From the NCBI RefSeq assembly GCF_022690685.1, contig NZ_JALCYY010000025.1, positions 21,938 to 78,954 of the forward strand: a stretch of DNA of 57,017 bases, in the 5' to 3' direction. The translations under genes and the position numbers were made by a program. Below are positions 1,399-29,457 of the stretch, piece by piece. Origin of the DNA: Anaeromyxobacter terrae. GTDB lineage: Bacteria; Myxococcota; Myxococcia; Myxococcales; Anaeromyxobacteraceae. A model generated the notes under the pieces. It had not been told where the DNA came from. It saw only the letters and a program-made list of their open reading frames with translations, and ran no database searches. How positions within the stretch are numbered: position 1 is the first letter of the stretch; each line of letters begins with the position of its first letter.

Positions 1399-2079
1399 AT
1401 GGCCGAACCCCAAGTCGACATGAGGCTCGAAGTCGCGATGCTCGGCGTTTCCGACGTCGACCGTGCGAAGACGTTCTACGAGAATCTCGGCTGGCGGCTC
1501 GACGCCGACGTCGCGAGCGACGGCTTCCACGCCGTGCAGCTGACGCCGCACAACTCGGAAGCCTCGATCATCTTCGGCAAGGGAGTCACTTCGCCCAAGC
1601 CTGGCTCGGTGGACAGCCTGGTCCTCGTCGTGAACGACCTCGAGGCCGCCCGCAAGGACCTGATCACCCACGGCGTCGAGGTGAGCGAGATCTTCCACTA
1701 CGCCGGCGGCCCCTTCAACACCTCCGTGAAGAGCTCACGCGTCAGCGGGCGCGACCCGCAAGGTCGTCCCTACCACTCGTTTGCCTCGTTCGCGGATCCG
1801 GACGGGAACGAGTGGCTGCTCCAGGAGATCCAGACGCGGCTTCCCGGCCGCGAGTGGACGTCGACGCGAGCACGAGCGACAGACGTCGCAACGCTTGCAG
1901 AGCTCCTCCACGAGACGGCAGAGCACCACGACGACTTCGAGAAGACGCACGCCGAGCACCACTGGTGGGATTGGTACGCGCCCTACCTCAGCGCCCGTCA
2001 GAGCGGCAGCAGTCCGGAGCAGGCCGCCGCCGCCGCCGGCCGCTACATGGAGGACGTCGTTCATGTTCCTCCCCGATGA
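1399..2079 (+). CDS. VOC family (glyoxalase/bleomycin-resistance fold) protein
   Basis: Residues 1-125 carry a VOC domain: EVAMLGVSDVDRAKTFYENLGW at the start and SFASFADPDGNEWLLQEI at the end, where Glu and His positions usually bind a divalent metal. A helical tail of about 90 residues follows, rich in His and acidic residues (HETAEHHDDFEKTHAEHHWWDW). This tail is not part of the usual 120-140 residue family. The ATG at 1399 is preceded by GGAGAG at a good distance; a longer upstream frame has no ribosome site. The next gene starts 56 bases after the stop on the same strand, so co-transcription with the nitrilase is plausible. The substrate is unknown. Confidence 0.78.
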   Translation: MAEPQVDMRLEVAMLGVSDVDRAKTFYENLGWRLDADVASDGFHAVQLTPHNSEASIIFGKGVTSPKPGSVDSLVLVVNDLEAARKDLITHGVEVSEIFHYAGGPFNTSVKSSRVSGRDPQGRPYHSFASFADPDGNEWLLQEIQTRLPGREWTSTRARATDVATLAELLHETAEHHDDFEKTHAEHHWWDWYAPYLSARQSGSSPEQAAAAAGRYMEDVVHVPPR

Positions 2080-2135
2080 CGCTGTTGCTGGACGCATCGG
2101 CCGGACCGCGCCAGACGCTCCGGAAAGGGAATCAC

Positions 2136-3638
2136 ATGAGATTCGTCAAGGCCGCTGCCGTTCAGATGAGTCCCGTGCTCTACAGCCGCGAGGCAACGGT
2201 CGCGAAGGTCGCGCGGAAGATCCACGACCTCGGGCAGCAGGGCGTGCAGTTCGCCACGTTCCCAGAGACCGTGATCCCGTACTACCCGTATTTTTCCTTC
2301 GTCCAGACTCCCCTGCAGAACATCGCCGGACCCGAGCAACGGAAGCTGATCGAGCAGGCCGTGACGGTGCCGTCCCCCGCCACGGAGGCGATCGGCGAAG
2401 CTGCCGGACAGGCGGGAATCGTCGTGTCCATCGGCGTGAACGAGCGCGACGGCGGAACCCTTTACAACGCCCAGCTTCTCTTCGATGCCGATGGGACCTT
2501 GGTCCAGAGGCGCCGCAAGATCTCGCCCACCTATCACGAGCGCATGATCTGGGGCGAGGGAGACGGTTCGGGCCTGCGCGTCGTCGACAGCGAGGTCGGC
2601 CGCATTGGCCAGCTGGCCTGCTGGGAGCACTACAACCCCTTGGCGCGCTACGCGATGATGGCCGACGGCGAGAAGATCCACTCGGCCATGTATCCGGGCT
2701 CCATCTTCGGAGAGCTGTTTGCGCAGCAGACGGAAACGAACGTCCGGCAGCATGCATTGGAGTCCGGGTGCTTCGTCGTCACCGCGACGGCCTGGCTCGA
2801 CCCCGATCAGCAAGCACAGATCATGAAGGACACCGGCTGCAGCATCGGGCCGATCTCCGGCGGCTGCTTCACCGCGATCGTGGCTCCCGACGGGACCTTG
2901 CTGGGCGAACCCATCCGCTCGGGTGAGGGCGTGGTCATCGCCGACCTCGACTTCACGCTGATCGACAAGCGCAAGCAGCTGATGGACTCGCGCGGCAACT
3001 ACGCCCGGCCGGAATTGCTCAGTCTCCTGATCGACCGCACCCCGACCGCCCACGTTCACGAACGCGCCGCGCACGCCGGGCGAGCCGCCGAGCAAGGCTC
3101 CGAGGAGCTCCTCACGACGGTGGCCGGACGTGGAAGGAGCGAGAGAACAACCACAGAGGTCCAGGTCCGGAGAATCAGCGTCGTCTCGTCTAGCCCATTC
3201 GAGGAGACCGTCAGGCGCCTCACGGCGACCATCGGCCGTCCTGACATGATGGCGTTCCACAACGCGCTCGAAGCGGCAGCGAGCGTTGCGGAGCTGGAAG
3301 GGATCGTTCGGGCGGCCATCGGACCCTCGAACCTGATGGAGTTCGTCCGCTTCGACGCCGGCGAGGTCCTGCGCAAGGAGGGAGGCGGTCGAGTCCCGAG
3401 GATCCTCCGCCTCATGGTCGGTAATCCGCTGATCATGAAGGAGATGGCCAGGACGACTCCCGACGCAGCATCCTACGCGCCAGTGACGATCCTGATCGAC
3501 GAGCGCACCGACGGGGTGCACCTCTCCTACGACTCGATGGCGAGCCTCATCGCTCCCTACGGCAGTCAGGCGGCACTCGTCGTCGCCAGGGATCTCGACG
3601 CCAAGGTCGAGCACCTGCTCGAAACGGCGGCGCGGTGA
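2136..3638 (+). CDS. Nitrilase-family hydrolase fused to a C-terminal DUF302 domain
   Basis: Residues 1 to about 320 form a carbon-nitrogen hydrolase of the nitrilase branch. The catalytic triad is readable: Glu44 in FPETVIPYYPYFSF, Lys128 in RRRKISPTYHER and Cys162 in GQLACWEHYNPLARY. The HYNPLARY context after Cys is typical of true nitrilases rather than amidases. After a short linker, about residues 345-500 match DUF302 (starting near VRRISVVSSSPFEETVRRL). This makes the protein 500 residues, much longer than the usual 320-370. The start is the ATG with AAGGGA upstream. The amidase gene begins 9 bases after the stop. Nitrilases convert nitriles to acids plus ammonia; substrate and the role of DUF302 here are unknown. 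Confidence 0.88.
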   Translation: MRFVKAAAVQMSPVLYSREATVAKVARKIHDLGQQGVQFATFPETVIPYYPYFSFVQTPLQNIAGPEQRKLIEQAVTVPSPATEAIGEAAGQAGIVVSIGVNERDGGTLYNAQLLFDADGTLVQRRRKISPTYHERMIWGEGDGSGLRVVDSEVGRIGQLACWEHYNPLARYAMMADGEKIHSAMYPGSIFGELFAQQTETNVRQHALESGCFVVTATAWLDPDQQAQIMKDTGCSIGPISGGCFTAIVAPDGTLLGEPIRSGEGVVIADLDFTLIDKRKQLMDSRGNYARPELLSLLIDRTPTAHVHERAAHAGRAAEQGSEELLTTVAGRGRSERTTTEVQVRRISVVSSSPFEETVRRLTATIGRPDMMAFHNALEAAASVAELEGIVRAAIGPSNLMEFVRFDAGEVLRKEGGGRVPRILRLMVGNPLIMKEMARTTPDAASYAPVTILIDERTDGVHLSYDSMASLIAPYGSQAALVVARDLDAKVEHLLETAAR

Positions 3639-15061: not shown

Positions 15062-15267
15062 TCTCGGGTTCCCGCCCGGGTTCCCGCCCGACAGTACTGC
15101 CGCACGAACCGGGGTTCCCGCCCGACAGTACTGCCGCACGAACCGGGGTTCCCGCCCGACAGTACCGCCGCACGAACCGTCGGCCGTCCCGCGGACGGTC
15201 TCGCATCGCGTAAGCCCCCGTGATGACGAGCGACAACCGCGGCACGGCTCCTACCTGCCGTCGCCGC
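15062..15267 (+). mobile_element. Left end of a RAYT-type element: 34-bp tandem repeats plus truncated gene start
   Basis: Three tandem units of 34 bp with the core CCCGCCCGACAGTAC lie at about 15080-15181. They are followed by a region (15182-15267) that aligns closely with 20824-20910, the sequence leading into the intact transposase. The copy includes the start codon at 15221 and encodes MTSDNRGTAPTCRRRVT before homology stops. It is therefore the 5' end of the same element, cut after about 17 codons. There are no spacers, so it is not a CRISPR array. Confidence 0.8.
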
Positions 15268-15291
15268 GTGACAGGAATTGAACCAGCGACC
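15268..15291 (-). repeat. tRNA-Pro T-arm-like sequence (possible distal attachment site)
   Basis: Twenty-one of 24 bases match 25621-25644, the T-arm of tRNA-Pro(CGG), in the same orientation. The acceptor stem is not conserved, and the copy has a mismatch in the T-stem, so it is not a functional tRNA. The geometry fits a decayed distal att site of an element integrated at the tRNA 3' end, but chance similarity is possible. Confidence 0.4.
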
Positions 15292-15311
15292 ACGCCATGG
15301 ACTCGTTCCGC

Positions 15312-16256
15312 CTACAACTGCACCCCGTACGCGGCTTCCCTGAACACCAGGACGTTCGAGTGGATGGTCGGCAGACCGTCGGGCAGATCAATATAGAACC
15401 CGGCCCGCCCTGACCCGTTCCCGATATAGGAAGTCGGCTGCACATAGACTCCCTGGATGCCCAAGATGCTATACGAACCGGCCGATTCAACGAAGACGAC
15501 CGGGTAGTCGGGCGCTGTGATGTCAAGGGTGAATCCCGCCACGTCGGCGTTGATCAGGTCGACGGTGCCGACACCCAACAACGTAGGCGGAGTCACGGAA
15601 AAGTTGAGGTTGAGGTAACTCCGCCAAGATGCTGGGTCATTATCTTCGAACGTAATGAGGCCGACGTTTCGCGGGGGGAAGGTGACCGTGACTTGCGTCG
15701 AGAAGTTCTCCGCCAATGTCGTCCCGCTGCTGGGCACGAAATTCGCCAGCCGAACCTGTGCACCGATGCCGTTGAGCGTGAAAGACAAGGAGTAGAGGCC
15801 GGTGGCGTCTCGGCTCAAGACGCCGGTGAAGGGAACGGCAAAGCCGGAGTTGGTTCCGAAAATGCCCATGGCGAGCAGGACGGCTTTGGGGTCGATCATG
15901 CCACCGCTGCCCGCCCTGGGACACATGCCGATCAGGCTCTCGCCATCGAGGCCGACGGAAACCCTACATGACAGGCCAGCGCCGCAGTCTGCATCCGTGC
16001 AGCATTGTCCTGCGGAGGGGTCGTAGACGAAGTCTCCGTGGTTGCCGACGTGGCTCTTGACGGCGGCTTCGGGAAGCCTGAGGGGAACCCATCGCCCGCC
16101 GGCGCGGTGGCACACGGAGACCTCCGCCGCCGACATCGCGTGCGACTCCAAGGTCAACGCTGATGACGCATGCGACCCGCTCACGGGATCGGCAACGTCC
16201 GGCGCCCCGCAAGCCAGCAACAGGCAACCGGCAATAGCCATCGCTGTTCGCTGCAT
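15312..16256 (-). CDS. Lipoprotein of unknown function with CH...HGD-like motif
   Basis: The 314-residue protein has a lipoprotein signal (MAIAGCLLLACGAPD). Near the N-terminus is SVCHRAGGRWVPLRLPEAAVKSHVGNHGDF, which resembles a short Cys-His...His-Gly-Asp motif seen in many exported proteins. A small Cys cluster follows (QCCTDADCGAGLSCRV). The remaining two thirds look like beta-strand-rich sequence (SLSFTLNGIGAQVRLANFVPSS). The start at 16256 has GAGAGGAG just upstream on the minus strand. The gene is flanked by the left end (15062) and a right end (16733) of the RAYT-type element. Function is unknown; base composition is lower in GC than the core genes. Confidence 0.7.
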   Translation of the reverse strand: MQRTAMAIAGCLLLACGAPDVADPVSGSHASSALTLESHAMSAAEVSVCHRAGGRWVPLRLPEAAVKSHVGNHGDFVYDPSAGQCCTDADCGAGLSCRVSVGLDGESLIGMCPRAGSGGMIDPKAVLLAMGIFGTNSGFAVPFTGVLSRDATGLYSLSFTLNGIGAQVRLANFVPSSGTTLAENFSTQVTVTFPPRNVGLITFEDNDPASWRSYLNLNFSVTPPTLLGVGTVDLINADVAGFTLDITAPDYPVVFVESAGSYSILGIQGVYVQPTSYIGNGSGRAGFYIDLPDGLPTIHSNVLVFREAAYGVQL

Positions 16257-16732
16257 AGAGTCTCCTCTCGTCAAGCAAGCCGATCATGCTCCGGGCTGCA
16301 CGACCATCAGGTCGGCTCCTGGGTAGGCCTCTGCGGTGTACGTCTCACCGGTGTGACCACCCGCCGCGTGGACGGCCGCGCGCTGCCGCTGATCGCCTGA
16401 CGCGCTCCCCGGGTCCGTGGGCGAAGATCAGCCGGGACCGCCCCGCTCTGCCCGCCGCTCGCACGCACGCCGAGCGCGGGGGCCGGCACTCGCCGACACG
16501 TACCGGCTGATCCCGCGGTCCAACCCAGGCAAACCGGTTTCGAACCTTCGATGCGGCAGTCTAGAAGCTGCTGCCGATCTCGAACGCGCGAGCGAGGTCC
16601 ATCTGAGCGGAAGTCTCCAGGCCCAAAAGCTACCGGCGACAGCCACCGCCCGGCATCCAGTCAGGTGGCCGCTTCGCGAGCCAGTCGCTCACGCTGCACA
16701 CCTCGACCACGCCCGTTCGCTTGTCCGGGTCT

Positions 16733-16772
16733 GCCCCGACGAGCTTCGCCGCCGGGTTACTCTCGGGCCGGG
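16733..16772 (-). repeat. Solo right end of the RAYT-type element
   Basis: TTACTCTCGGGCCGGG (16757-16772) differs at one base from the right-end motif at 22555. The 24 bases before it (CGACGAGCTTCGCCGCC...) also match the bases before that motif, so this is an end sequence and not a chance short match. It lies on the other side of the lipoprotein gene from the left end at 15062. Confidence 0.65.
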
Positions 16773-17376: not shown

Positions 17377-17827
17377 GTCGCCCCTCCTTGCGTCGTGTTT
17401 CGACGCCGATCCAGTCACAGCCGACCTGCTCCCCGACGTCACCGCTGTCGAGCAATCACTCATTGTGTTCCCTGGGCGGCGCGTCCGTCGGAACGCGTCC
17501 AATGATTCCAGCGAGGAAGGCCCGGTGTCATCCCGCCCGGCGGGGCCTGTGACCGCTTTTCGCAGCGCTCGAATGCCTCGCATGCTCGCAAGCCCTCGTA
17601 GCGCCCGTACCAAATGCGAATGCGGTCACGAGACCGTCGCGCGGCGCGAGGCCGCGCGAACGTGGTAGTGCTCGCGGTGCATTGCCCGGTCACCATTGCC
17701 GGAGGCGTGCCGGTGGCGCGGGCGCGCGCCGCACCCTTCGATGGAAATGGCGGCCGAGCGCCTATCGGATCCATCTTCACCTGTCGGCGACTCGTCCCTG
17801 TGCGGATGCAGACGCGACGGGGTGACC
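17377..17827. other. 451-bp divergent intergenic region
   Basis: This region lies between a minus-strand and a plus-strand gene and should hold both promoters. No convincing -35/-10, -24/-12 or palindromic operator was seen. Confidence 0.5.
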
Positions 17828-20743
17828 ATGAAAGCGCAAACGATCCGGTTCGTCATCGCCGTCGTCGCTGCGACGCTCGCTTGCGGGGACTCGGGCGAGA
17901 TCGGAGAGCAACCGCTCGCATCGGCATCGGTGCTCTCGGACGCGAAGCTCGAGGCGAGCACCGTCCCGAGCGCAACCGCCTGCTCCCCGCTCCAGAACGG
18001 CGTGGCGCTCCCGAGCCTGTCGGCCCCGGCGGGCGCGACGCCCTGCTTCGTGATCAGCGTGCCTGCCGATCAGAGCTGGCTCACCGTGAGCGTGAGCGGC
18101 GGGAGCGGCAACGCCGATCTCTACGTGGCGGTCAACGCCGTCCCCACCCTGAGGGCCTACGACTGTCGGAGCGCGCGCACCGGAAACGACGAGGCGTGCA
18201 CGATCGATGCCCCCGCCGCGAACGCCTCGTACTACGTGATGCTGTACGCCCGCAGGGCCTTCTCGGGCGTCAGCCTCACGGCCAAGTACAGCGGCGCGAG
18301 CGCGTGCGTCCCGCTGCAGAACGGCGTCGAGACGAAGCTGGCCGCCGCGAAGGCGGATCGCCTTTGCTATACCGCCGACGTCCCTGCCGGTCAGGCCTCT
18401 CTCACCGTGCGCACCAGCGGAGGGGAGGGAAACGCCGACCTGTACCTCCGGTCCGGCGCGGTGCCGACCTTGAGAACCTTCGATTGCCGGAGCGCCGGCA
18501 GGACCACCATCGAGTCGTGCACGATCACCAGCCCCGCGGCTGGGACCTGGTACGTGATGTTGAACGCGACCACGGCCTTCTCTGGCGTCGCCCTGACGGC
18601 CACCTCCAATCGAGGGAGGCTCGTCCTCGTCTCGGGTGGAGACCAGGTCGGGTCGATCAACACCATGCTCCCAGAGCCGGTCGTCGTCCGGCTCGAGGAC
18701 CTCGCCGGCGTGCCGCTGTCGGGCCAGACCGTCGGGTTCCAGGTGGTCGCCGGCGGGGGATCCGTGACGGCCAGCTCCGTCACGACCGCCAGCGACGGGA
18801 CGGCCTCCGTTCGCTGGACGCTCGGGCCCACGGCGTCGCTACAGCAGCTGAGGGCGTCCGCGACCGATCCGCTCACCGGGGAGACGCTGACGCTGACGAT
18901 CTCGGCCCAGGTGATGAGCGCGGTTGGCGGGTCCCTGGTGGTGAACTCGCTCGAGGACATCGTTGCCCCACCGCCCGGCACCGTGACGCTCCGGTCGGCT
19001 CTCGCCGCGGCGGCGTCCGGCGACACGATCACCTTCGCCCCCGGCCTCGACGGCGGGACGATCCAGCTCGGCCTCGTCGGCGCGGAGCATTCGATCCTGC
19101 CGGGCGAGGTGTACTCGGGCATGACGTACGCCGGATACCAGGACCGCGACTACGGCCGGTCCGCACTGTACGCGCACAGGAACGTCGTCATCGACGCCTC
19201 GATGCTGCCGAAGGGGATCACGCTTCGCTGGAACGGCGGCGCCGCGCTCCACGCGCGCGTGCTCGCCGTCTACGGCAACCTGACGATGACGAACGTGACC
19301 ATCTCCTCCGGGTACTCCGCCGCCGAGGCGACGGGAAACACGGCCCAGCCGTACACGCTCGCGCGGGGCGGCGGGCTCGCGGTGTGGGGAACCGCGACGC
19401 TCACCCGGTGCACGATCGCGGGCAACACGGTCGAAGGCGACACGAGTGCGAGCCGGGACCGCGGCACCTACGGCGGCGGGATCTACGCCAACGGGCTGAA
19501 GCTCCTGGATGTCATCGTGAGCGGCAATGCCGCCATGGGGTACGGAGCCGCGGGTGGCGGCATCTACTCGGTGGGGGGAGCGAGGCTCGGCCCACCCTCG
19601 AGCTTCATCGGACAGGGCAATGACACGTCGCTGAGCCGGTGCACCATCAGCGGAAACAGGGTGACTGCCCAGCACGCATACGGCGGCGGCATCTTCACGC
19701 TGTCCGGCGGGCCGGACAACCTGGCCACGATGTACGTCTCGAACTGCACCGTGGCGCGCAATCTTGTCGAGGACAACACGGCCCTGCCCCAGACCGGGCA
19801 GTACTACTACCGCGGGGGCGGCATCTACATGGGCGGCGGTTCGCTCTACGTCGTCGCGAGCACCATCGCCGAGAACGAGGTGAACGGTCCGTCGCCCGAC
19901 GTTCCTTTCGGCGGAAAGCCCAACGTCGGCGGCGGCGGGGTCGCCGCCACGATCGGGAACGCGCACACGGTCGAGTACGTGTACCTGCAGAACTCGATCG
20001 TCGTCGGGAACAAGCTGAACGGCGCCGCGGAGGACTGGTTCCCCGGCTCCATCCTCGATTTCCGCAGCCGCGGATACAACCTCGTCGGGCGGATCGACTT
20101 CGGCCAGATCCTCGTGCCCGTCCCCGCCTGGATGGATCTCAACAGGAGACGCTGGCCGAAGCTGGGAGACGAGGAGGCGATCGCGCTGGCGGACGCGCTC
20201 GACCTCAACGGAGCCCATCGCTCCGACTCGGTCATCTCCGTCGGCACCGACACGGGAGAGCACGCCGTGCTCTGGTATCCGCCTTCGACGAAGGCGATCG
20301 ACAAGATCCCTGACGGTCAGTACACGCTGACGTACGTGGACGGCGGCTACTCCGGCTACGGTGTCGCGACCGACGACTTCTTGCGCCAGGTGATCCTGCA
20401 GCTCAGGAAGCAGTACGGCTCGATCCTGGGCAGTGACTTCGGGAGCGCGCTCATTCCACCGACCGGGACGACGTGGTACGAGCAGCCCGTGATCTGGCCG
20501 TCGGATCCGAACAACGAGAAATGGATCCAGTTCTGGCGCGCCCTCGACGTCGAGCTCGCCGGCAGGCTCGGACAGGTCGGCCTGGGCGACGGCTTCTGGG
20601 GGACCTTCCGCAGCGGGCCGGTCGGCAACGAGTGGATCACGATCCAAAGGGCGAGCTCCACGTTCGGCCACGTGGCGACGGACCAGACCGGCAAGGCGCG
20701 CCCGAGCGGTGCTCTCGTGGACATCGGCGCGATCGAGAAGTAG
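17828..20743 (+). CDS. Large lipoprotein: two PPC domains, Ig-like domain, parallel beta-helix
   Basis: The 971-residue protein has a lipoprotein signal (FVIAVVAATLACGDSG). Two tandem pre-peptidase C-terminal-like domains follow (about 50-145 and 150-250), each with the SGGxGNADLYLRxGAVPTLRxYDCRS pattern. About residues 258-365 form an invasin-like Ig domain (GQTVGFQVVAGGGSVTASSVTT). The rest is a right-handed beta-helix with TLRSALAAAASGDTITFAPGLDGGTIQL at its start, many GGGIY/GGGIF turns, and a DIGAIEK ending typical of choice-of-anchor Q proteins. It is most likely a surface adhesin or polysaccharide-binding protein. The RAYT element repeats begin directly after its stop, so it may have lost its native terminator. 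Confidence 0.85.
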   Translation: MKAQTIRFVIAVVAATLACGDSGEIGEQPLASASVLSDAKLEASTVPSATACSPLQNGVALPSLSAPAGATPCFVISVPADQSWLTVSVSGGSGNADLYVAVNAVPTLRAYDCRSARTGNDEACTIDAPAANASYYVMLYARRAFSGVSLTAKYSGASACVPLQNGVETKLAAAKADRLCYTADVPAGQASLTVRTSGGEGNADLYLRSGAVPTLRTFDCRSAGRTTIESCTITSPAAGTWYVMLNATTAFSGVALTATSNRGRLVLVSGGDQVGSINTMLPEPVVVRLEDLAGVPLSGQTVGFQVVAGGGSVTASSVTTASDGTASVRWTLGPTASLQQLRASATDPLTGETLTLTISAQVMSAVGGSLVVNSLEDIVAPPPGTVTLRSALAAAASGDTITFAPGLDGGTIQLGLVGAEHSILPGEVYSGMTYAGYQDRDYGRSALYAHRNVVIDASMLPKGITLRWNGGAALHARVLAVYGNLTMTNVTISSGYSAAEATGNTAQPYTLARGGGLAVWGTATLTRCTIAGNTVEGDTSASRDRGTYGGGIYANGLKLLDVIVSGNAAMGYGAAGGGIYSVGGARLGPPSSFIGQGNDTSLSRCTISGNRVTAQHAYGGGIFTLSGGPDNLATMYVSNCTVARNLVEDNTALPQTGQYYYRGGGIYMGGGSLYVVASTIAENEVNGPSPDVPFGGKPNVGGGGVAATIGNAHTVEYVYLQNSIVVGNKLNGAAEDWFPGSILDFRSRGYNLVGRIDFGQILVPVPAWMDLNRRRWPKLGDEEAIALADALDLNGAHRSDSVISVGTDTGEHAVLWYPPSTKAIDKIPDGQYTLTYVDGGYSGYGVATDDFLRQVILQLRKQYGSILGSDFGSALIPPTGTTWYEQPVIWPSDPNNEKWIQFWRALDVELAGRLGQVGLGDGFWGTFRSGPVGNEWITIQRASSTFGHVATDQTGKARPSGALVDIGAIEK

Positions 20744-20750
20744 CCCGGAA

Positions 20751-20820
20751 CCCCGCCCGACAGTAGGAACCCCGCCCGACAGTACCGCCGCGCGAACCCC
20801 GCCCGACAGTACCGCCGCGC
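20751..20820 (+). repeat. Left-end tandem repeats (three CCCGCCCGACAGTA cores)
   Basis: The GACAGTA core occurs at 20759, 20778 and 20805, with spacings of 19 and 27 bases. The unit is CCGCCCGACAGTACCGCCG followed by CGCGAACC. The same core occurs three times at 34-base spacing at 15080-15181. Confidence 0.85.
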
Positions 20821-20869
20821 GAACCGCCGACCATCCCGCGGCCGTTCTCGCATTGCGTAAGCCTCCGCG

Positions 20870-21814
20870 ATGACGAGCGACGGGCGCGGCACGGCCTCTG
20901 CCTGTCGTCGCCCCGTGACCCCGCCCCGTCGCGTTTTGCCCGGAACCACCTACCTCGTGACGCGCCGCTGCTCGGAGCGACGCTTCTTCCTGCGGCCGAG
21001 TCCGGTCGTGAACGAGATCTTTCTCTACGTCCTCGCCGTCGCCGCGCGCCGCTACGGCGTCCTCGTCCACGCGTTCTGCGTCCTCTCGAACCATGCACAC
21101 CTGGTCCTCACCGACCCTGACGGCCGTCTCCCCGCATTCATGCAGTACCTCGACTCCCTCGTCGCGCGAGCTGTGAACGCGTCCCTGGGACGCTTCGAGG
21201 GCTTCTGGGCCACCGACGGAAGCTACAGCGCGGTCGAGCCGCTCGACCCGGAGGACGTCGTCGCCAAGATTGCCTACGTGCTCGCGAACCCGGTCGCCGC
21301 CGGCCTCGTCCGCCGCGGCGCCGAGTGGCCGGGCCTCTGGACCGCGCCCGAGCAGCTGGCGGGCACGAAGCTCTCGGTGCGCAGGCCCAAGGTCTTCTTC
21401 GACCCGAAGAGCTACCTGCCCGACGTCGCGGAGCTCGAGCTGACCGTCCCTCCCGGCTTCGCATCGGCGGAGGACTTCCGCGCGCTCGTATCGGAGGCGC
21501 TCGACGGCCTCGAGGAGAAGCACCAGCGGGAGCTCGCCTCGGAGAGGCGCAGGTTTCTCGGAGCTGCGCGCGTCCTCGCCCAGAACCCGTTCTCGCGTCC
21601 GCCGTCCGGCGAGCCGCGCTTCGCGCTCAGGCCGCGGATCGCCGCCCGCGATAAGTGGAGGCGGATCGAGGGGATCTTCCGCTTGAAGACGTTCCTGCGC
21701 GAGTACCGGCAGGCCTGGACCGCGCGGCTGTCGGGCGCGTCCGACGTGAAGTTCCCCGCGGGCACCTACCTCCTCCGCCTCATGCACGGCGTGCAGTGCG
21801 CCGGCGCTGCGTAG
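20870..21814 (+). CDS. REP-associated tyrosine transposase (RAYT, IS200/IS605-like HUH family)
   Basis: The 314-residue protein has the features of the RAYT/TnpREP group of Y1 HUH transposases. The N-terminal PGTTYLVTRRCSERRFFLRP is followed by VLVHAFCVLSNHAHLVLTDPDGRL, which contains the His-Ala-His metal site, and by KIAYVLANPVAAGLV, where the catalytic Tyr is expected. A basic C-terminal extension (about 220-314) is longer than in the simplest members. The enzyme nicks single-stranded DNA at REP-type hairpins. The gene looks intact and is surrounded by short repeats that occur elsewhere in the window. It starts at the ATG within the conserved leader also found at 15221. Confidence 0.9.
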   Translation: MTSDGRGTASACRRPVTPPRRVLPGTTYLVTRRCSERRFFLRPSPVVNEIFLYVLAVAARRYGVLVHAFCVLSNHAHLVLTDPDGRLPAFMQYLDSLVARAVNASLGRFEGFWATDGSYSAVEPLDPEDVVAKIAYVLANPVAAGLVRRGAEWPGLWTAPEQLAGTKLSVRRPKVFFDPKSYLPDVAELELTVPPGFASAEDFRALVSEALDGLEEKHQRELASERRRFLGAARVLAQNPFSRPPSGEPRFALRPRIAARDKWRRIEGIFRLKTFLREYRQAWTARLSGASDVKFPAGTYLLRLMHGVQCAGAA

Positions 21815-21822
21815 GTCGCTCG

Positions 21823-21912
21823 GCGCTCGATCATCGAGCCGAAGAAGAACTCGGTCGCGCTCGCGTCCGGCGCCGCCCCATGCGCGGCGAGGCGCCGACG
21901 AGCGTCTGGGCG
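21823..21912 (+). repeat. 3' hairpin block of the RAYT element (copy next to the intact gene)
   Basis: The block holds GGCGCC twice, separated by 16 bases, within outer arms CGCTCG and CGAGCG, so it can fold into a long imperfect hairpin, as REP sequences do. Close copies are at 22354-22443 and 9865-9960. Confidence 0.75.
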
Positions 21913-22059
21913 TTGTCCGAGCCGTCCACATACCGGTTCGAGCGGTGCACACGGTCACTTGTTTCGGCGCCGGCGCGCCCCTTCCGCACACCACGAGGCT
22001 GGGCGGGGCCCGCCTTCACGTTTCGCGGAGCGGGTACTCTCGGGCGGGGCGCCGCCACT

Positions 22060-22346
22060 TGGAGCTCGCCTCGGAGAGGCGAAAGTTTCTCGGACCTGCC
22101 CGCGTCCTCGCCCAGAACCCGTTCTCGCGCCCGCAGCCCGGCGAGCCGCGCTTCGCGCTCAGGCCGCGGATCGCCGCCCGAGACAAGTGGAGGCGCATCG
22201 AGGGGATCTTCCGCGTGAAGACGTTCCTGCGGGAGTACCGGCAGGCGTGGACCGCGAGGCAGTCGCATGCGGCCAACGTGCTGTTTCCGGCCGGCACTTA
22301 TCTCCTCCGCCTCATGCACGGCGTGCAGTGCGCCGGCGCCGCGTAG
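22060..22346 (+). pseudogene. 3' fragment of a second RAYT transposase gene
   Basis: About 95 codons match the C-terminus of the intact transposase (21533-21814) from ELASERR to the final MHGVQCAGAA and stop, with only scattered substitutions. The catalytic HUH and Tyr regions are missing. Right-end motif sequence lies exactly at its upstream junction (22035-22049). The hairpin block after it (22354-22443) is also duplicated. Confidence 0.88.
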
Positions 22347-22554
22347 GTCGCTCCGCGCTCCACCATCAAGCCGAAGAAGAACTCGGTCACGCCTGCGTCC
22401 GGCGCCGCCATATGCGCGGCGAGGCACCGACGAGCGCCTGGGCGTCTGTTTCGTCCGCCGCGCGCCCACTTCCGCACGCAGGAGTCGTCCTCGTCAGGCT
22501 TCGCGAGATGGTTACCATCGCGCCCGAGGCCGACCGACGGGCTTCGCGGCGCGG

Positions 22555-22591
22555 TTACTCTCGGGCGGGGCACAGTTACTCTCGGGCGGGG
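22555..22591 (+). repeat. Two tandem right-end motifs of the RAYT element
   Basis: TTACTCTCGGGCGGGG occurs at 22555-22570 and again at 22576-22591. The phage-protease coding sequence begins immediately after the second copy, which marks an insertion or deletion junction. Confidence 0.85.
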
Positions 22592-22596
22592 CACAC

Positions 22597-23730
22597 GCGA
22601 TCTACGACGCTCTCCGTCGCTTCTCGGACGAGGGCGGGATCGTGGTCGTCTACATCGCGGGTCGCGCGGACAGCACCGGGACCGTGATCGCATGCGCGGG
22701 CGACTACGTGCTCGCGCACCCGGACGCGTGGATCGGGATCCACTCCGGCGTAGCCGAGTGCGCCGAGGAGCGGAACGAGGTCAACCGACGCTTTCTCTCG
22801 GTCTACGTCGCGCGCACCGGCATGACGCGGGAGGAGCTCGAGGAGGCACTCGCTCCGCCTCCCGAGGTCGTCACGGGGATCCCCGCGTCCGCGGCGGCCG
22901 CGCTCGGATGGGCGGACTTCATGGGCGACGAAGCGGAGGCGCGCAGGTTCGTGGACTCGATCGCGAAGGGCTGGCGGCCCGCGGGGCCTCGCCGCGACAT
23001 GCTGACGGCCCGCGCCGCGAACGGATGGCCGGCGGCCACGCTCGAGGCGACGGGGCTCACCAACGCGCCCGGCGCCGCGTACCAGGGCACGTGGTGTCGC
23101 GTCGTGCAGGCGACGGACACGAACTGGACCACGCTCGCGTTGACGCCCAGGATCCCGATAGCTGAGGGCGAAACCGTCTACGCCGAGGCGATGATCGCGC
23201 CGGAGGCGACCGCCGTGAACAACGGCAGCACCCTTAAGTGCGGCGTGCTCGTCGTGTCGTGGCTCGACAGCACCGGCGTCGAGATCGGGTCGGCCTCTGC
23301 CGCGCCATCGACCGCGGGGACATACGGGAAGGTCGCGTTTTCCGCGACGGCTCCCGCGGGCGTGAGCACGATGCGGCTTCGCGCCGACGTGCAGGGGCAG
23401 GCGAAGAAGGCGTACCTCGACAACCTCGTGCTGCGGAAGGAGCCGCGCGGCGGGCAGGTTCGCGGATACATCGCCATCGACGGCTCGATCCTCAAGGATT
23501 ACGGGTTCGGCTTCACCTGCTCCAAGATCGGAACCGGGACGTACGAGATCACCCACCCATCCATCAACGCCGCGAACACGATCGCCACGGTGAGCGGCGA
23601 GGGTTACGTCGCGGGGACCTTCGGGATGTGGCACGTGTTCTCGAGCCCCACGCGCCTGCGGTTCACGTTCTGGGACCACACGGGGACGATGACCGACGCT
23701 CGGTTCGCGTTTAGCTTCTGGTCGGCCTAG
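22597..23730 (+). pseudogene. 5'-truncated phage ClpP-like head protease with C-terminal extension
   Basis: The reading frame enters from repeat DNA and continues as AIYDALRRFSDEGGIVVVYIAGRADSTGTVIACAGDYVLAHPDAWIGIHSG. That is the core of the ClpP-type protease used by phages for head maturation: Ser in ADSTGTVIA and His in IHSG are the catalytic residues. The N-terminal 40-60 residues that normally precede this core are missing. The last 200 residues are beta-rich (SWLDSTGVEIGSASAAPSTAG, RLRADVQGQAKKAYLDN), as in tail or capsid decoration domains. No start codon with a ribosome site is evident. It is most likely a dead prophage remnant. Confidence 0.75.
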
Positions 23731-25816: not shown

Positions 25817-28800
25817 CTAGAACACCGTCACCTCCGCGGACTCCGATCTGCCGTCGAGCTGGGCCTCGATCCGCACGGTTCCGGCGCGCTTCGCCAGGAA
25901 CTTCCCGGGCGCCGCGGGGTCGAACTCGACCACCGTCGGATCGGCGCTCCACCACGTCGCCTTGCTCGACACGTCGACCGTGGCGCCGTCCGCGAAGCGG
26001 GCGGTCGCGCGGAACCGGTAGCTCGTTCCCGCGGGGACCGTGGGCGCGACGCCTTCGAGCTCGAGGCGGTCGATGGGGGTGTTCGACACCGTCACGGACC
26101 AGGGCCACACCTGCAGCCCGGACGCCGCGGTGATGATGGCCGTCCCCGGAGCGACTCCCTCGACGACCGCGGGCCCGACCACCTTCGCCACCGCCGGGTT
26201 CGACGAGCTCCACGTCAGCGCCTTCTCGAAGTCGGAGAAGGTCGGGTTCTCGTAGGCGTTGAGGTACAGGCGCTCGTACGGGTGGAGGCCGCGCGGCCCG
26301 ATGTCCTGCGCGTACAGCCCGAACTCGCCCACGGGGTGCGTGACGTTCACGACCGTGGTCGCGGTCTTCCCGCCCCACGTCGCGGTGACCACCGCGCTCC
26401 CCATCTTCAGGCCCGTGAACGAGCCGTACTGGCCCGAGAACGAGGCCTCGACGACGTCGGCGGGGGAGACGGTCACCAGTGGCCCGGTCACGGCCCCCGC
26501 GCCGCTTCCCACGAGCGTCGCGCTGAGCTCCGCCGACACCCGGCCGCCGACGGGCAGCTCGTACGACGGGTAGCTGAATCGGAGGCCCACGACCTGCGGC
26601 TCCGCCGCCGCTGCGACCACCGGGACGGCGTCCGTTCCGATGAGCCCGTTCCAGGTCGCGTCGAGGGTCGCCATCCCCTCGGCGATCGCCTGCAGCTCCG
26701 GCATGGTGCCCGGCGTCCACGTGAGCGTCGCAACGCCCGGGCTCGAGGACGCAAACGTCGCGAGCTTGGTCACGTCCACGTAGTCGCCGCTGTCGAGCTG
26801 CACGTAGGCGCGCGGCGTCGTCTTCGCGCCCACCGTGAGCTGGTACGGGAGCGACAGGTAGAGGGTCTTCGGCGCCGCGGGCACGACCGTGCCCTGCGTC
26901 ACGACGGTCACGTCGTCGAGGCGCGCGCGCAGCTCCACCGTGCCGACCTTCCTCGCGACCACCGTCGCGCCGCGCACCTCGAGGATCGACGGATCGCTCG
27001 ACTCGAACGCGGCGAACGCCGTCGCCGAATAGGTCGCGGTGGCGGTCGGGACCGACAGGGTGAGCGCCGCCTTGCCGCCGAGCGGCACGGTGACGGGCGA
27101 GAGCGCGAGCTCCGCGGTGGGGGTCACCGTCGTGAGCGACACCGACGCCTGCATCGGCGCGCCGGCCGGGCTCGTCGTCGAGACGCGGATGGACACGGTA
27201 CCAGGGGCGAGCGCGCGCACCCTGCCCGGGCGCGCGGGATCGTCGAACGCGGCGATCGACGCGGCGCTCGTGGTCCAGGTGACCTCCCGATCCACGGGGA
27301 CGTCCACGTCCTGGCCGCCCACCGAGTACACGTACACGGCCCGATACTGGGCCGTGTGCCCGACCGGCAGCCGCTCCGAGGTGTACTGGAGCACGGGGCG
27401 GATGCCGAGCCCGCCGAAGCCCGGCTCGCGCACGACCGTGGCGGTCGCGGTCCCGAAGACGTCGCCGATCGCGGCGGTGATCTCGCCCGTGCCCGGGCCG
27501 GACGACCAGAAGCTGCCGCCGTTGACCGAGCCGATGACGCGGTCGCAGCGCCAGGTGACGAGGGTCGTCGCGTCGGTGGTGCGGCCGTCGGCGAGGTGGG
27601 CCGTCGCGCTCAGCTGCCGCGTCACGCCCGAGGCCGCGACGAACGACGCCGGGGAGATGGTGATCGAGGCGAGCGGCCCGAGCACCGTGATCGTCTTCGT
27701 CGCCGTCATCCCGCCGAACGCCGCCGTCAGCGTGGCGCTGCCGGGGCCGACCACGGTGGCGGTGCCCTTCGTGCCCGGCGCGTTGGAGATCGCGATCACC
27801 GCGGGATCGCTCGAGGACCACTCGGCGTAGCTCGAGACGTCCTCCGTCTCGACGACGTACTTCCCCTGCACGCGCGTCTCCGCCTTCACGTTCCAGCTCA
27901 CGCCCGCCGGCACCGACGCCGGCGCGTCGAGGGTGAACGACAGCGGCGCGGTCACCTGGAGGCTCGCGGTGACGGAGAGCCCCGCGTAGCGCGCCTCGAG
28001 GGTGGTGGTCCCGAGGCCGACCGCGCGGACGACCGTGTCGCCCGACCAGCCCACCTCGACGAGACCGACGGCGGGATCGGCGACGGAGAGCTTCGCCGAG
28101 CTCGAGACGTCGTAGCTCGAGCCGTCCGCGTAGCGCAGCCTCACCGTGGGGGGCGGCCAGGTGTAGGCGCCCAGGCCCATGGCGATGGCGGTCGCGTCGA
28201 GCGCGAGCCCGGTCGGCGCGTCGCCGGTGGCGGTCACCGCCGCGCGTCCCACCGCGCCGCCGTAGCTGGCGGTCACGGTGGCGACGCCGCCCGCGATCAT
28301 CGTCGCGACGCCGGCGGCGTCCACCGTCACGGCGGCCGAGTCGGACGACCAGGTCGCGAGCGCGGTCACGTCGGCGGAGGTGCCGTCCGCGTGGAGCGCG
28401 GTGGCGCGGAGCGGATACGCGACGCCCACCGGCAGCGGCGAGGGGACGGGCTGGACGAGCAAGAAGATGACGCTATCGGAGGCGACGGTGAGCTCGGCCG
28501 ACGCGGACTTCCCGCCGAACGAGGCGCCGATCGTGCTCGCGCCGGGCGCGAGCGCACGGATGCGCCCCGCGCTCTCCGCCACGCTGGACACCACGGCCGT
28601 CGCGGCCGCGCTCGACGTCCAGTCCGCGAGGAGCGTCACGTCGCGCAGGCCGCCGTCGGAGTAGAGGGCGAACACGCGGGCGTCGAGCGAGTCGCCCGCG
28701 GCGAGGGTGAACGCGGGAGGCACGCCGAGGAGGAGCGAGGCGAGCGAGGCCGCTTCCACGGTGACGTGCGCCTGCGCGGAGAGGCCGGCGTAGCTCGCCC

Positions 28801-29347
28801 GCACGTCGGTGCCGCCGACCTTCACGCCCGACACCACGCCGCGCGCCACGGTGGCGACCAGCGGATCGACGCTCGTCCAGGTGGCGGCCGCGGTCACGTC
28901 GATCTCGACGCCGCGATCGGTGGTCCCGAGGCAGCGGAGCGAGACGGACTGGCCCGCGGAGATCGTCGCGCTCGTCGGATCGGCGCGGAGGGACACGAAC
29001 GTCGGAGTGTCCACGGTGACGAGGGCCGTCCCCTGGATGGCGCCCACCGCCGCGGTGACGGTCGCCGTCCCCGCGGTGACCCCGGTCACGACGCCCGCCG
29101 AGACCTGCGCGATGCCGCCGTTGAGCGACGTCCAGCTCGCCTCGGCGGTCACGTCGCGCTTGCTGCCGTCGTCGTAGGCGCCGGTCGCGGTGAGCTTCAC
29201 CGTCGCGCCCACCACCGTCACCGCCGTCGCGGGCGACACCGCGATGGAGACGAGCGTCGCGGGAGGCTTCGAGCCGCCGCTTCCGCCGCCGCTGCTGCAC
29301 GCCGCCGCGAGCACGGCCGCGAGGCCGAGCGCCGAGATCCGCCGCAT
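25817..29347 (-). CDS. Surface lipoprotein with 13 bacterial Ig-like (Big_2) domains
   Basis: The 1176-residue protein has a lipoprotein signal (ISALGLAAVLAAACSSGGGSGG). Then come thirteen repeats of about 85-90 residues, each beginning like LVSIAVSPATAVTVVG and containing DGSKRDVTAEASWTSLNGGIAQVS and a GTATVTA turn; this is the Big_2 pattern. Such proteins form extended rods for adhesion or cell-wall attachment. No enzymatic domain is seen. The start at ATG 29347 has GGAGGGGAAC upstream; an upstream in-frame extension has no signal peptide. The gene follows the next one on the same strand with a 110-base gap, so they may be co-transcribed. Confidence 0.88.
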   Translation of the reverse strand: MRRISALGLAAVLAAACSSGGGSGGSKPPATLVSIAVSPATAVTVVGATVKLTATGAYDDGSKRDVTAEASWTSLNGGIAQVSAGVVTGVTAGTATVTAAVGAIQGTALVTVDTPTFVSLRADPTSATISAGQSVSLRCLGTTDRGVEIDVTAAATWTSVDPLVATVARGVVSGVKVGGTDVRASYAGLSAQAHVTVEAASLASLLLGVPPAFTLAAGDSLDARVFALYSDGGLRDVTLLADWTSSAAATAVVSSVAESAGRIRALAPGASTIGASFGGKSASAELTVASDSVIFLLVQPVPSPLPVGVAYPLRATALHADGTSADVTALATWSSDSAAVTVDAAGVATMIAGGVATVTASYGGAVGRAAVTATGDAPTGLALDATAIAMGLGAYTWPPPTVRLRYADGSSYDVSSSAKLSVADPAVGLVEVGWSGDTVVRAVGLGTTTLEARYAGLSVTASLQVTAPLSFTLDAPASVPAGVSWNVKAETRVQGKYVVETEDVSSYAEWSSSDPAVIAISNAPGTKGTATVVGPGSATLTAAFGGMTATKTITVLGPLASITISPASFVAASGVTRQLSATAHLADGRTTDATTLVTWRCDRVIGSVNGGSFWSSGPGTGEITAAIGDVFGTATATVVREPGFGGLGIRPVLQYTSERLPVGHTAQYRAVYVYSVGGQDVDVPVDREVTWTTSAASIAAFDDPARPGRVRALAPGTVSIRVSTTSPAGAPMQASVSLTTVTPTAELALSPVTVPLGGKAALTLSVPTATATYSATAFAAFESSDPSILEVRGATVVARKVGTVELRARLDDVTVVTQGTVVPAAPKTLYLSLPYQLTVGAKTTPRAYVQLDSGDYVDVTKLATFASSSPGVATLTWTPGTMPELQAIAEGMATLDATWNGLIGTDAVPVVAAAAEPQVVGLRFSYPSYELPVGGRVSAELSATLVGSGAGAVTGPLVTVSPADVVEASFSGQYGSFTGLKMGSAVVTATWGGKTATTVVNVTHPVGEFGLYAQDIGPRGLHPYERLYLNAYENPTFSDFEKALTWSSSNPAVAKVVGPAVVEGVAPGTAIITAASGLQVWPWSVTVSNTPIDRLELEGVAPTVPAGTSYRFRATARFADGATVDVSSKATWWSADPTVVEFDPAAPGKFLAKRAGTVRIEAQLDGRSESAEVTVF

Positions 29348-29457
29348 GTTCCCCTCCCCGCGCCGCGCACGGCGCGCGTCCCGGCGTTCACGCTGGGATA
29401 CGGCGCGCGAGGGTATACAGCGGGTCAACGAGCGGCAAGGTTGCGGCCGCACCTACA

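What the first reader, a model, noticed from the sequence alone, without database searches (positions are those of the whole stretch)
20744..22591. RAYT-type transposase unit with inverted terminal repeats
Short repeats flank the intact RAYT gene. The left repeats (CCCGCCCGACAGTA) and right repeats (TTACTCTCGGGCGGGG) are inverted copies: the reverse complement of the right motif matches the left at 14 of 15 positions. RAYTs are usually thought of as domesticated single-copy genes that act on dispersed REPs. Here the gene itself looks to sit inside a unit with defined ends, and further end copies occur nearby. This suggests that the whole unit moved or was shuffled.
Basis: partly seen in the sequence, partly recalled or inferred. 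Interest (0 to 1): 0.7.

Follow-up and report, generated by a model that had tools for sequence, protein, structure and literature searches.

The report
Jumping-gene unit with paired ends
The RAYT-type transposase gene in this Anaeromyxobacter genome sits between short mirrored end sequences, and a sister unit in a related species is cleanly absent from the same spot in another, which suggests that these supposedly settled, single-copy genes can still copy themselves around a genome.

Summary
A RAYT-type gene (window 20915-21814) lies between three left motifs (CCCCGCCCGACAGTA) and inverted right motifs (TACTCTCGGGCGGGG). The interval holds two elements: an intact unit (about 20745-22050) and, joined to it, a 5'-truncated relative (22061-22591).

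The design is family-wide. Of 41 related units in Anaeromyxobacteraceae, 39 carry the left and 32 the right motif in the expected orientation, against 0 and 3 in the opposite one. Paralogue homology stops at the motifs. One unit in A. oryzisoli has a near-exact empty site in A. oryzae (1,361 bp absent, flanks aligned to within a few bp, no duplication seen). Short gene-less inverted pairs look like non-autonomous derivatives. Distant relatives (Sorangium, MAGs) carry tandem arrays of a related motif.

The closest described kind is the TIRYT/TIRtron (RAYTs with terminal inverted repeats instead of REP hairpins); a canonical REP hairpin was tested and not supported. Transposition of the window's own unit is likely but unproven: only its left junction has a comparison, and its right end abuts a truncated phage protease gene. 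What stands out is whole-unit mobility, since RAYTs are described as single-copy genes that do not copy themselves.

The parts
20751..20765 (-). left end motif 1, TACTGTCGGGCGGGG on the - strand (outermost)
20770..20784 (-). left end motif 2
20797..20811 (-). left end motif 3, the innermost; its equivalent sits at -71 to -75 from the same reference point in most units
20812..20914 (+). leader between left motif and gene; in the family it holds alternating CGGMC/GTCCG/CGGAC half-sites conserved as sequence, without covariation for a hairpin
20915..21814 (+). RAYT/TIRYT-type Y1 HUH transposase, 299 aa from the family's conserved GTG start (alternative ATG 20870); HxH at residues 60/62 and Tyr121 invariant in 37 sequences; C-terminal domain of about 140 residues
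22035..22049 (+). right end motif that closes the intact unit
22061..22445 (+). 3' part of a second, 5'-truncated unit (89.9% identical to 21529-21913)
22556..22570 (+). right end motif of the truncated unit, copy 1
22577..22591 (+). right end motif of the truncated unit, copy 2
17696..20743 (+). left neighbour (PPC, beta-helix and choice-of-anchor Q domains); its stop codon directly precedes the unit. G005 has this gene without the unit, homology ending at about 20747
22594..23730 (+). right neighbour: ClpP-like phage head-maturation protease; phage profiles match only from position 67-136 onward, so its 5' part is missing at the unit's edge
15082..15164 (-). three left-type end motifs (15082, 15116, 15150) of a second end pair
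15117..15272 (+). left-end stretch 83% identical to the RAYT unit's left end and first codons; it breaks off at 15272
15312..16274 (-). non-RAYT gene of unknown function between the second pair of ends; an 89% identical stretch occurs in G005 without nearby motifs
16758..16772 (+). right-type end motif of the second end pair

Best explanation
This is an IS-like transposable unit that encodes its own Y1 (HUH-tyrosine) transposase of the RAYT branch and is bounded by short linear terminal inverted motifs, often repeated in tandem. The intact copy runs from the left motifs at 20751-20811 through the gene to the right motif at 22035-22049, and it abuts an older, 5'-truncated copy. Shown here: the paired ends across the family, homology that stops at the ends, within-genome amplification, an almost exact empty site for a sister unit, and a HUH core closest to TnpA_REP. 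Inferred: a dimer of the protein recognises the end motifs (perhaps through its C-terminal domain), cuts one strand next to the motif through Tyr121 and moves the unit as single-stranded DNA, leaving no target duplication, as IS200/IS605 elements do. Tandem ends and short gene-less pairs would arise when the enzyme or recombination joins one end to another.
For: Motif enrichment in the window. Left motif in 39/41 units in the expected orientation and 0/41 opposite; right 32/41 against 3/41. Units tend to carry their own motif variant at both ends. Paralogue homology ends at the motifs: window versus L100 from -100 to +241; the G017 pair 99.2% identical over 1,283 bp; L113 versus L117 from -75 to +252. 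Empty site: L114 unit 2065-3425 (1,361 bp) is absent in G006, where the flanks (83% and 80% identity) are 5 bp apart. For L117, homology in seven genomes without the unit stops within about 5-15 bp of its left edge. Lineage-specific copy clusters, for example in G003, G006, G009, G011 and G000. Gene-less inverted pairs of 130-220 bp, one present in G001 and G004 and absent in G002. Model matches E. coli TnpA_REP 4er8 first, E 8e-7.
Against: No empty site for the window's own unit; only its left edge has a comparison, and its right neighbour is truncated, so a rearrangement contributed. In G001, G002 and G004 several copies are at orthologous places. NF047646 and Pfam Y1_Tnp scores are below the curated cut-offs. 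Nine of 41 units lack a recognisable right motif at 3 or fewer mismatches. Activity and the site of cleavage were not tested.
Confidence: 0.8

Rival explanations
1. A domesticated, non-mobile RAYT whose flanking motifs are transposase or operator sites (as REPs flank ordinary RAYTs). Copies spread by ordinary duplication, gene conversion and horizontal transfer with homologous recombination, not by transposition.
For: Copies are syntenic in G001, G002 and G004. The leader holds conserved half-sites that could be operators. Several flanks are rearranged, and tandem partial copies exist (G007, L102).
Against: Paralogue homology ends at the motifs and not in the flanks, and the empty site in G006 fits the unit edges to a few bp. 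Duplication by homologous recombination would carry flank along.
Confidence: 0.13
2. The window interval is a scar of rearrangement: an old unit, now dead, broken and joined next to a decayed prophage, so the apparent double-ended unit at this place is a mosaic.
For: Truncated second copy between right motifs. The phage protease lacks its 5' part at the edge. A second pair of ends nearby surrounds an unrelated gene.
Against: The first unit has an intact reading frame with invariant catalytic residues, complete ends and the family spacing. Its closest relatives at other loci (C110 in the same genome, 92%; G007, 91%) have matching edges.
Confidence: 0.25
3. A canonical REP/RAYT system (REPtron) whose hairpin REPs have simply diverged.
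For: The inverted arrangement around a RAYT-like gene is that of REPtrons (PMC2817692), and some left ends hold GTCCG-N5-CGGAC.
Against: No consensus fold, no covariation clearly above shuffles, mean folding z-scores of about 0 for both ends, no GTRG foot at the motif, and only about 5-60 motifs per genome instead of hundreds.
Confidence: 0.08

Closest known systems
TIRYT / TIRtron (Di Nocera 2013, PMC3733652; tentatively equated with TnpA_Y1 subclass 2.1 in Quentin 2018, PMC6006769)
   Same: RAYT-like HUH transposase longer than ordinary RAYTs, flanked by terminal inverted repeats and not by GTAG REPs; some repeats form dimers or clusters elsewhere in the genome; subclass 2.1 is prevalent in deltaproteobacteria among others
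   Different: The motif is CCCCGACCSAGAGTA, not GGGGWSAS. The protein is about 300 aa (subclass 2.1 median 238) with no detected HTH family. Ends are often tandem arrays. Copy number reaches up to about 19 matches in one genome, with an empty site. The two papers report no whole-unit movement in the passages read
RAYT / REPtron / REPIN system (Nunvar 2010, PMC2817692; Bertels and Rainey)
   Same: Gene inside an inverted pair of repeats; same catalytic core; short gene-less inverted pairs resemble REPINs
   Different: No conserved hairpin or GTAG foot, few dispersed copies, and the gene itself is multi-copy and mobile, whereas RAYTs are described as single-copy genes that do not copy themselves (PMC8049555)
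IS200/IS605 insertion sequences (IS608, ISDra2)
   Same: Single-gene mobile unit with a Y1 HUH transposase and no visible target duplication
   Different: IS200/IS605 ends are subterminal hairpins without terminal inverted repeats, and the transposases are about 130-150 aa. Here the ends are linear inverted motifs and the protein has an extra C-terminal domain
TnpA_Y1 subclass 2.3 (Quentin 2018, PMC6006769)
   Same: Long proteins, several copies per genome, no REPs
   Different: Defined by a 55-residue core insertion and NHYH/YVDLNP motifs; here YVLANP, and no large core insertion is evident from the alignment

Membership tests
Y1 HUH transposase, RAYT branch | HUH motif, catalytic Tyr with NP, TnpA_REP-like fold | tested here: met
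   SxHxH and Y121-x-x-x-NP conserved in 37 sequences; all 37 hit NF047646, though the window's protein is below its cut-off; best PDB fold match 4er8
RAYT / REPtron | REP hairpin with 5' GT[AG]G foot flanking the gene | tested here: not met
   No consensus fold, no clear covariation, mean z about 0; motif is linear, GAGTA in place of GTRG
RAYT / REPtron | REPs abundant across the genome (tens to hundreds) | tested here: not met
   About 5-60 motif matches per genome in the family, many of them at RAYT units
RAYT / REPtron | repeats in inverted orientation on both sides of the gene | tested here: met
TIRYT / TIRtron | RAYT-like gene flanked by terminal inverted repeats unrelated to GTAG REPs | tested here: met
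TIRYT / TIRtron | GGGGWSAS motif (reported for some TIRs, not all) | tested here: not met
   Inspection of the window's ends; not a required feature in PMC3733652
TIRYT / TnpA_Y1 subclass 2.1 | clusters with subclass 2.1 sequences; HTH-like C-terminal domain | not tested
   Subclass profiles were not available; no HTH family was found in Pfam
IS200/IS605 | precise insertion without target duplication | tested here: met
   One empty site, L114 against G006: flanks meet within about 5 bp, no duplication seen
IS200/IS605 | subterminal hairpins and no terminal inverted repeats | tested here: not met

The most novel reading that the evidence does not exclude
A family of RAYT-derived transposases in Myxococcota and some other phyla has given up REP hairpins for tandemly repeated linear end motifs. 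It still transposes as whole units, mobilises short gene-less derivatives in trans and may also carry passenger genes between its ends (window 15082-16772).
Probability: 0.35. Interest if true: 0.7.

Novelty: new variant of a known kind. Interest (0 to 1): 0.55.

Why it matters
RAYTs are the textbook case of a transposase that became a resident, single-copy gene; the literature states that they are vertically inherited and do not copy themselves (PMC8049555, citing Bertels 2017). A RAYT relative that amplifies as a bounded unit, with an empty site, gives a living intermediate between IS elements and domesticated RAYTs. It would allow a direct test of how a HUH enzyme that works on hairpins came to use linear ends, and of what the C-terminal domain adds.

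Tried and rejected
Empty sites were sought for L082, L120, L034, L100, L117 and the window's own locus: flanks matched on one side or were rearranged, and none was as clean as L114. For the 149-bp pair in L120, G002 lacks it, but about 30 bp of different sequence with a terminator-like repeat stands in its place, so it counts as a presence/absence difference and not as a precise empty site. A REP-like hairpin at the left end looked plausible by eye, but was not supported by folding or covariation. The idea that the gene at 15312-16274 is a passenger moved by the ends was weakened: its homologue in G005 has no end motifs beside it. An apparent extra motif shared by contigs C61 and C99 is the same sequence twice (contig overlap). 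Rfam found only tRNAs in the window.

Full report
Observation. The motif TACTSTCGGGCGGGG is present exactly as described: three copies on the - strand at 20751, 20770 and 20797, three on the + strand at 22035, 22556 and 22577, far above chance (10 matches with up to 2 mismatches in the window, 0.65 expected). The gene between them encodes a Y1 HUH protein (NF047646 E 1e-15, below its cut-off; Pfam Y1_Tnp E 0.001, below its cut-off). Alignment with 36 relatives places the conserved start at GTG 20915 and shows invariant HxH (60, 62) and Tyr121. The stretch 22061-22445 is 89.9% identical to 21529-21913, so the reported interval is one intact unit followed by the 3' part of another.

Genome context. 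The window lies in a 5.65-Mb draft genome of 142 contigs. The same genome holds further full or partial copies (C110 92% identical; C63, C92, C62, C134), and genomes of the genus and most of the family hold between 1 and 19 matches.

The ends are a family trait. In 41 units with enough flank, the left motif is found upstream in the expected orientation in 39 and in the opposite orientation in none; the right motif in 32 against 3 (up to 3 mismatches). Spacing from the innermost left motif to the reference point of the gene is mostly 71-75 bp, with some at 64-100. Ends are often repeated 2-6 times. In more distant relatives (Sorangium and MAGs labelled Deltaproteobacteria, Acidobacteria and others) the same places carry tandem arrays of GACC[CG][AG]GGTTG, forward on the left and reverse on the right; several distant members show no such motif.

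Evidence for movement. (a) Paralogue homology ends at the motifs. (b) Two units 4.4 kb apart in G017 are 99.2% identical over 1,283 bp from -81 to +258. (c) The unit at L114 in G003 (A. oryzisoli) occupies 2065-3425; in the complete genome G006 (A. oryzae) the left flank ends at 6557326 and the right flank begins at 6557332. Read side by side: G003 GACGTTCTGAA|CCCGACC...GGTCGGG|TTCAGCGG; G006 GACGTTCTAGCGC|TTCACCGC. Other relatives also lack the unit there, but carry other sequence or lack a flanking gene. (d) For the unit at L117, seven relatives without it share the left flank up to about 5-15 bp from its edge. (e) In the tree, several genomes have their own clusters of copies, while G001, G002 and G004 share syntenic copies. 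The last point shows that movement is episodic.

The window's own copy. The left neighbour's stop codon directly precedes the unit; G005 has the neighbour without the unit, and homology ends at window 20747. On the right, a phage head-maturation protease lacks its 5' part and starts at the last motif. So the right side was altered by deletion or rearrangement, and a clean insertion at this place is not shown.

Non-autonomous pairs. Gene-less inverted pairs about 130-220 bp apart occur, for example at G004 2157466/2157599, G007 4272051/4272183, G002 347676/347874 and G006 1640511/1640713. All such close pairs that I listed point the same way as in the gene-bearing units. One is present in G001 and G004 and absent in G002.

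What the ends are not. REPs are GTRG-footed hairpins. Here the left end has conserved half-sites CGGMC/GTCCG/CGGAC, but RNAalifold predicts no pair, pair counts do not clearly exceed shuffles, and mean z-scores are about 0. Motif counts of about 5-60 per genome contrast with the hundreds usual for REPs.

Mechanism. The AlphaFold2 model (mean pLDDT 82.5) matches TnpA_REP 4er8 and IS200/IS605 transposases over the core. I infer single-strand cutting by Tyr121 next to the end motif, transfer without target duplication, and recognition of linear motifs, perhaps by the C-terminal domain, which has no known family. None of these steps was shown here.

Comparison. The inverted arrangement is known for RAYTs (PMC2817692). 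RAYTs flanked by terminal inverted repeats were named TIRYTs (PMC3733652) and tentatively equated with subclass 2.1 (PMC6006769), described as low-copy and without REPs. In the held papers I found no description of this family in Anaeromyxobacter. RAYTs are stated to be single-copy genes that do not copy themselves (PMC8049555). The present family departs from that statement, and this is the reason for its interest.

Noticed in passing
window 15082-16772: A second outward pair of end motifs (three left, one right) surrounds an unrelated secreted-protein gene; the left-end stretch is 83% identical to the RAYT unit and breaks off at 15272 beside a stretch that resembles a tRNA 3' half (resemblance by eye, untested).
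   Followed up: partly
L100:1580-1993, L237, L238: A glyoxalase-family gene of about 420 bp is 93-95% identical in G007, G005 and G000 in three different contexts; the RAYT unit in G007 starts just after its stop codon. It looks like a mobile single gene.
   Followed up: partly
L042 (C99:143000-151000) and L043 (C61:12000-26000): 8,001 bp are 100% identical at the end of contig C99 and the start of C61; other shared hits keep the same offset, so the two contigs probably overlap by about 22 kb in the assembly.
   Followed up: partly
L102 (G007:2624500-2638000): Two partial RAYT copies with equal match lengths lie 3.26 kb apart beside a full copy, with tandem end motifs; this looks like a tandem duplication.
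   Followed up: no
L084 versus L080 and L088: G002 has about 250 bp more than G001 and G004 between the RAYT gene and its right motif, at an otherwise syntenic copy.
   Followed up: no
L113 (G003:C2:15000-25500): Several full and partial RAYT copies follow one another in one cluster, joined near end motifs.
   Followed up: no
window 25817-29452: Large gene with repeated bacterial Ig-like (Big_2) domains on the - strand.
   Followed up: no
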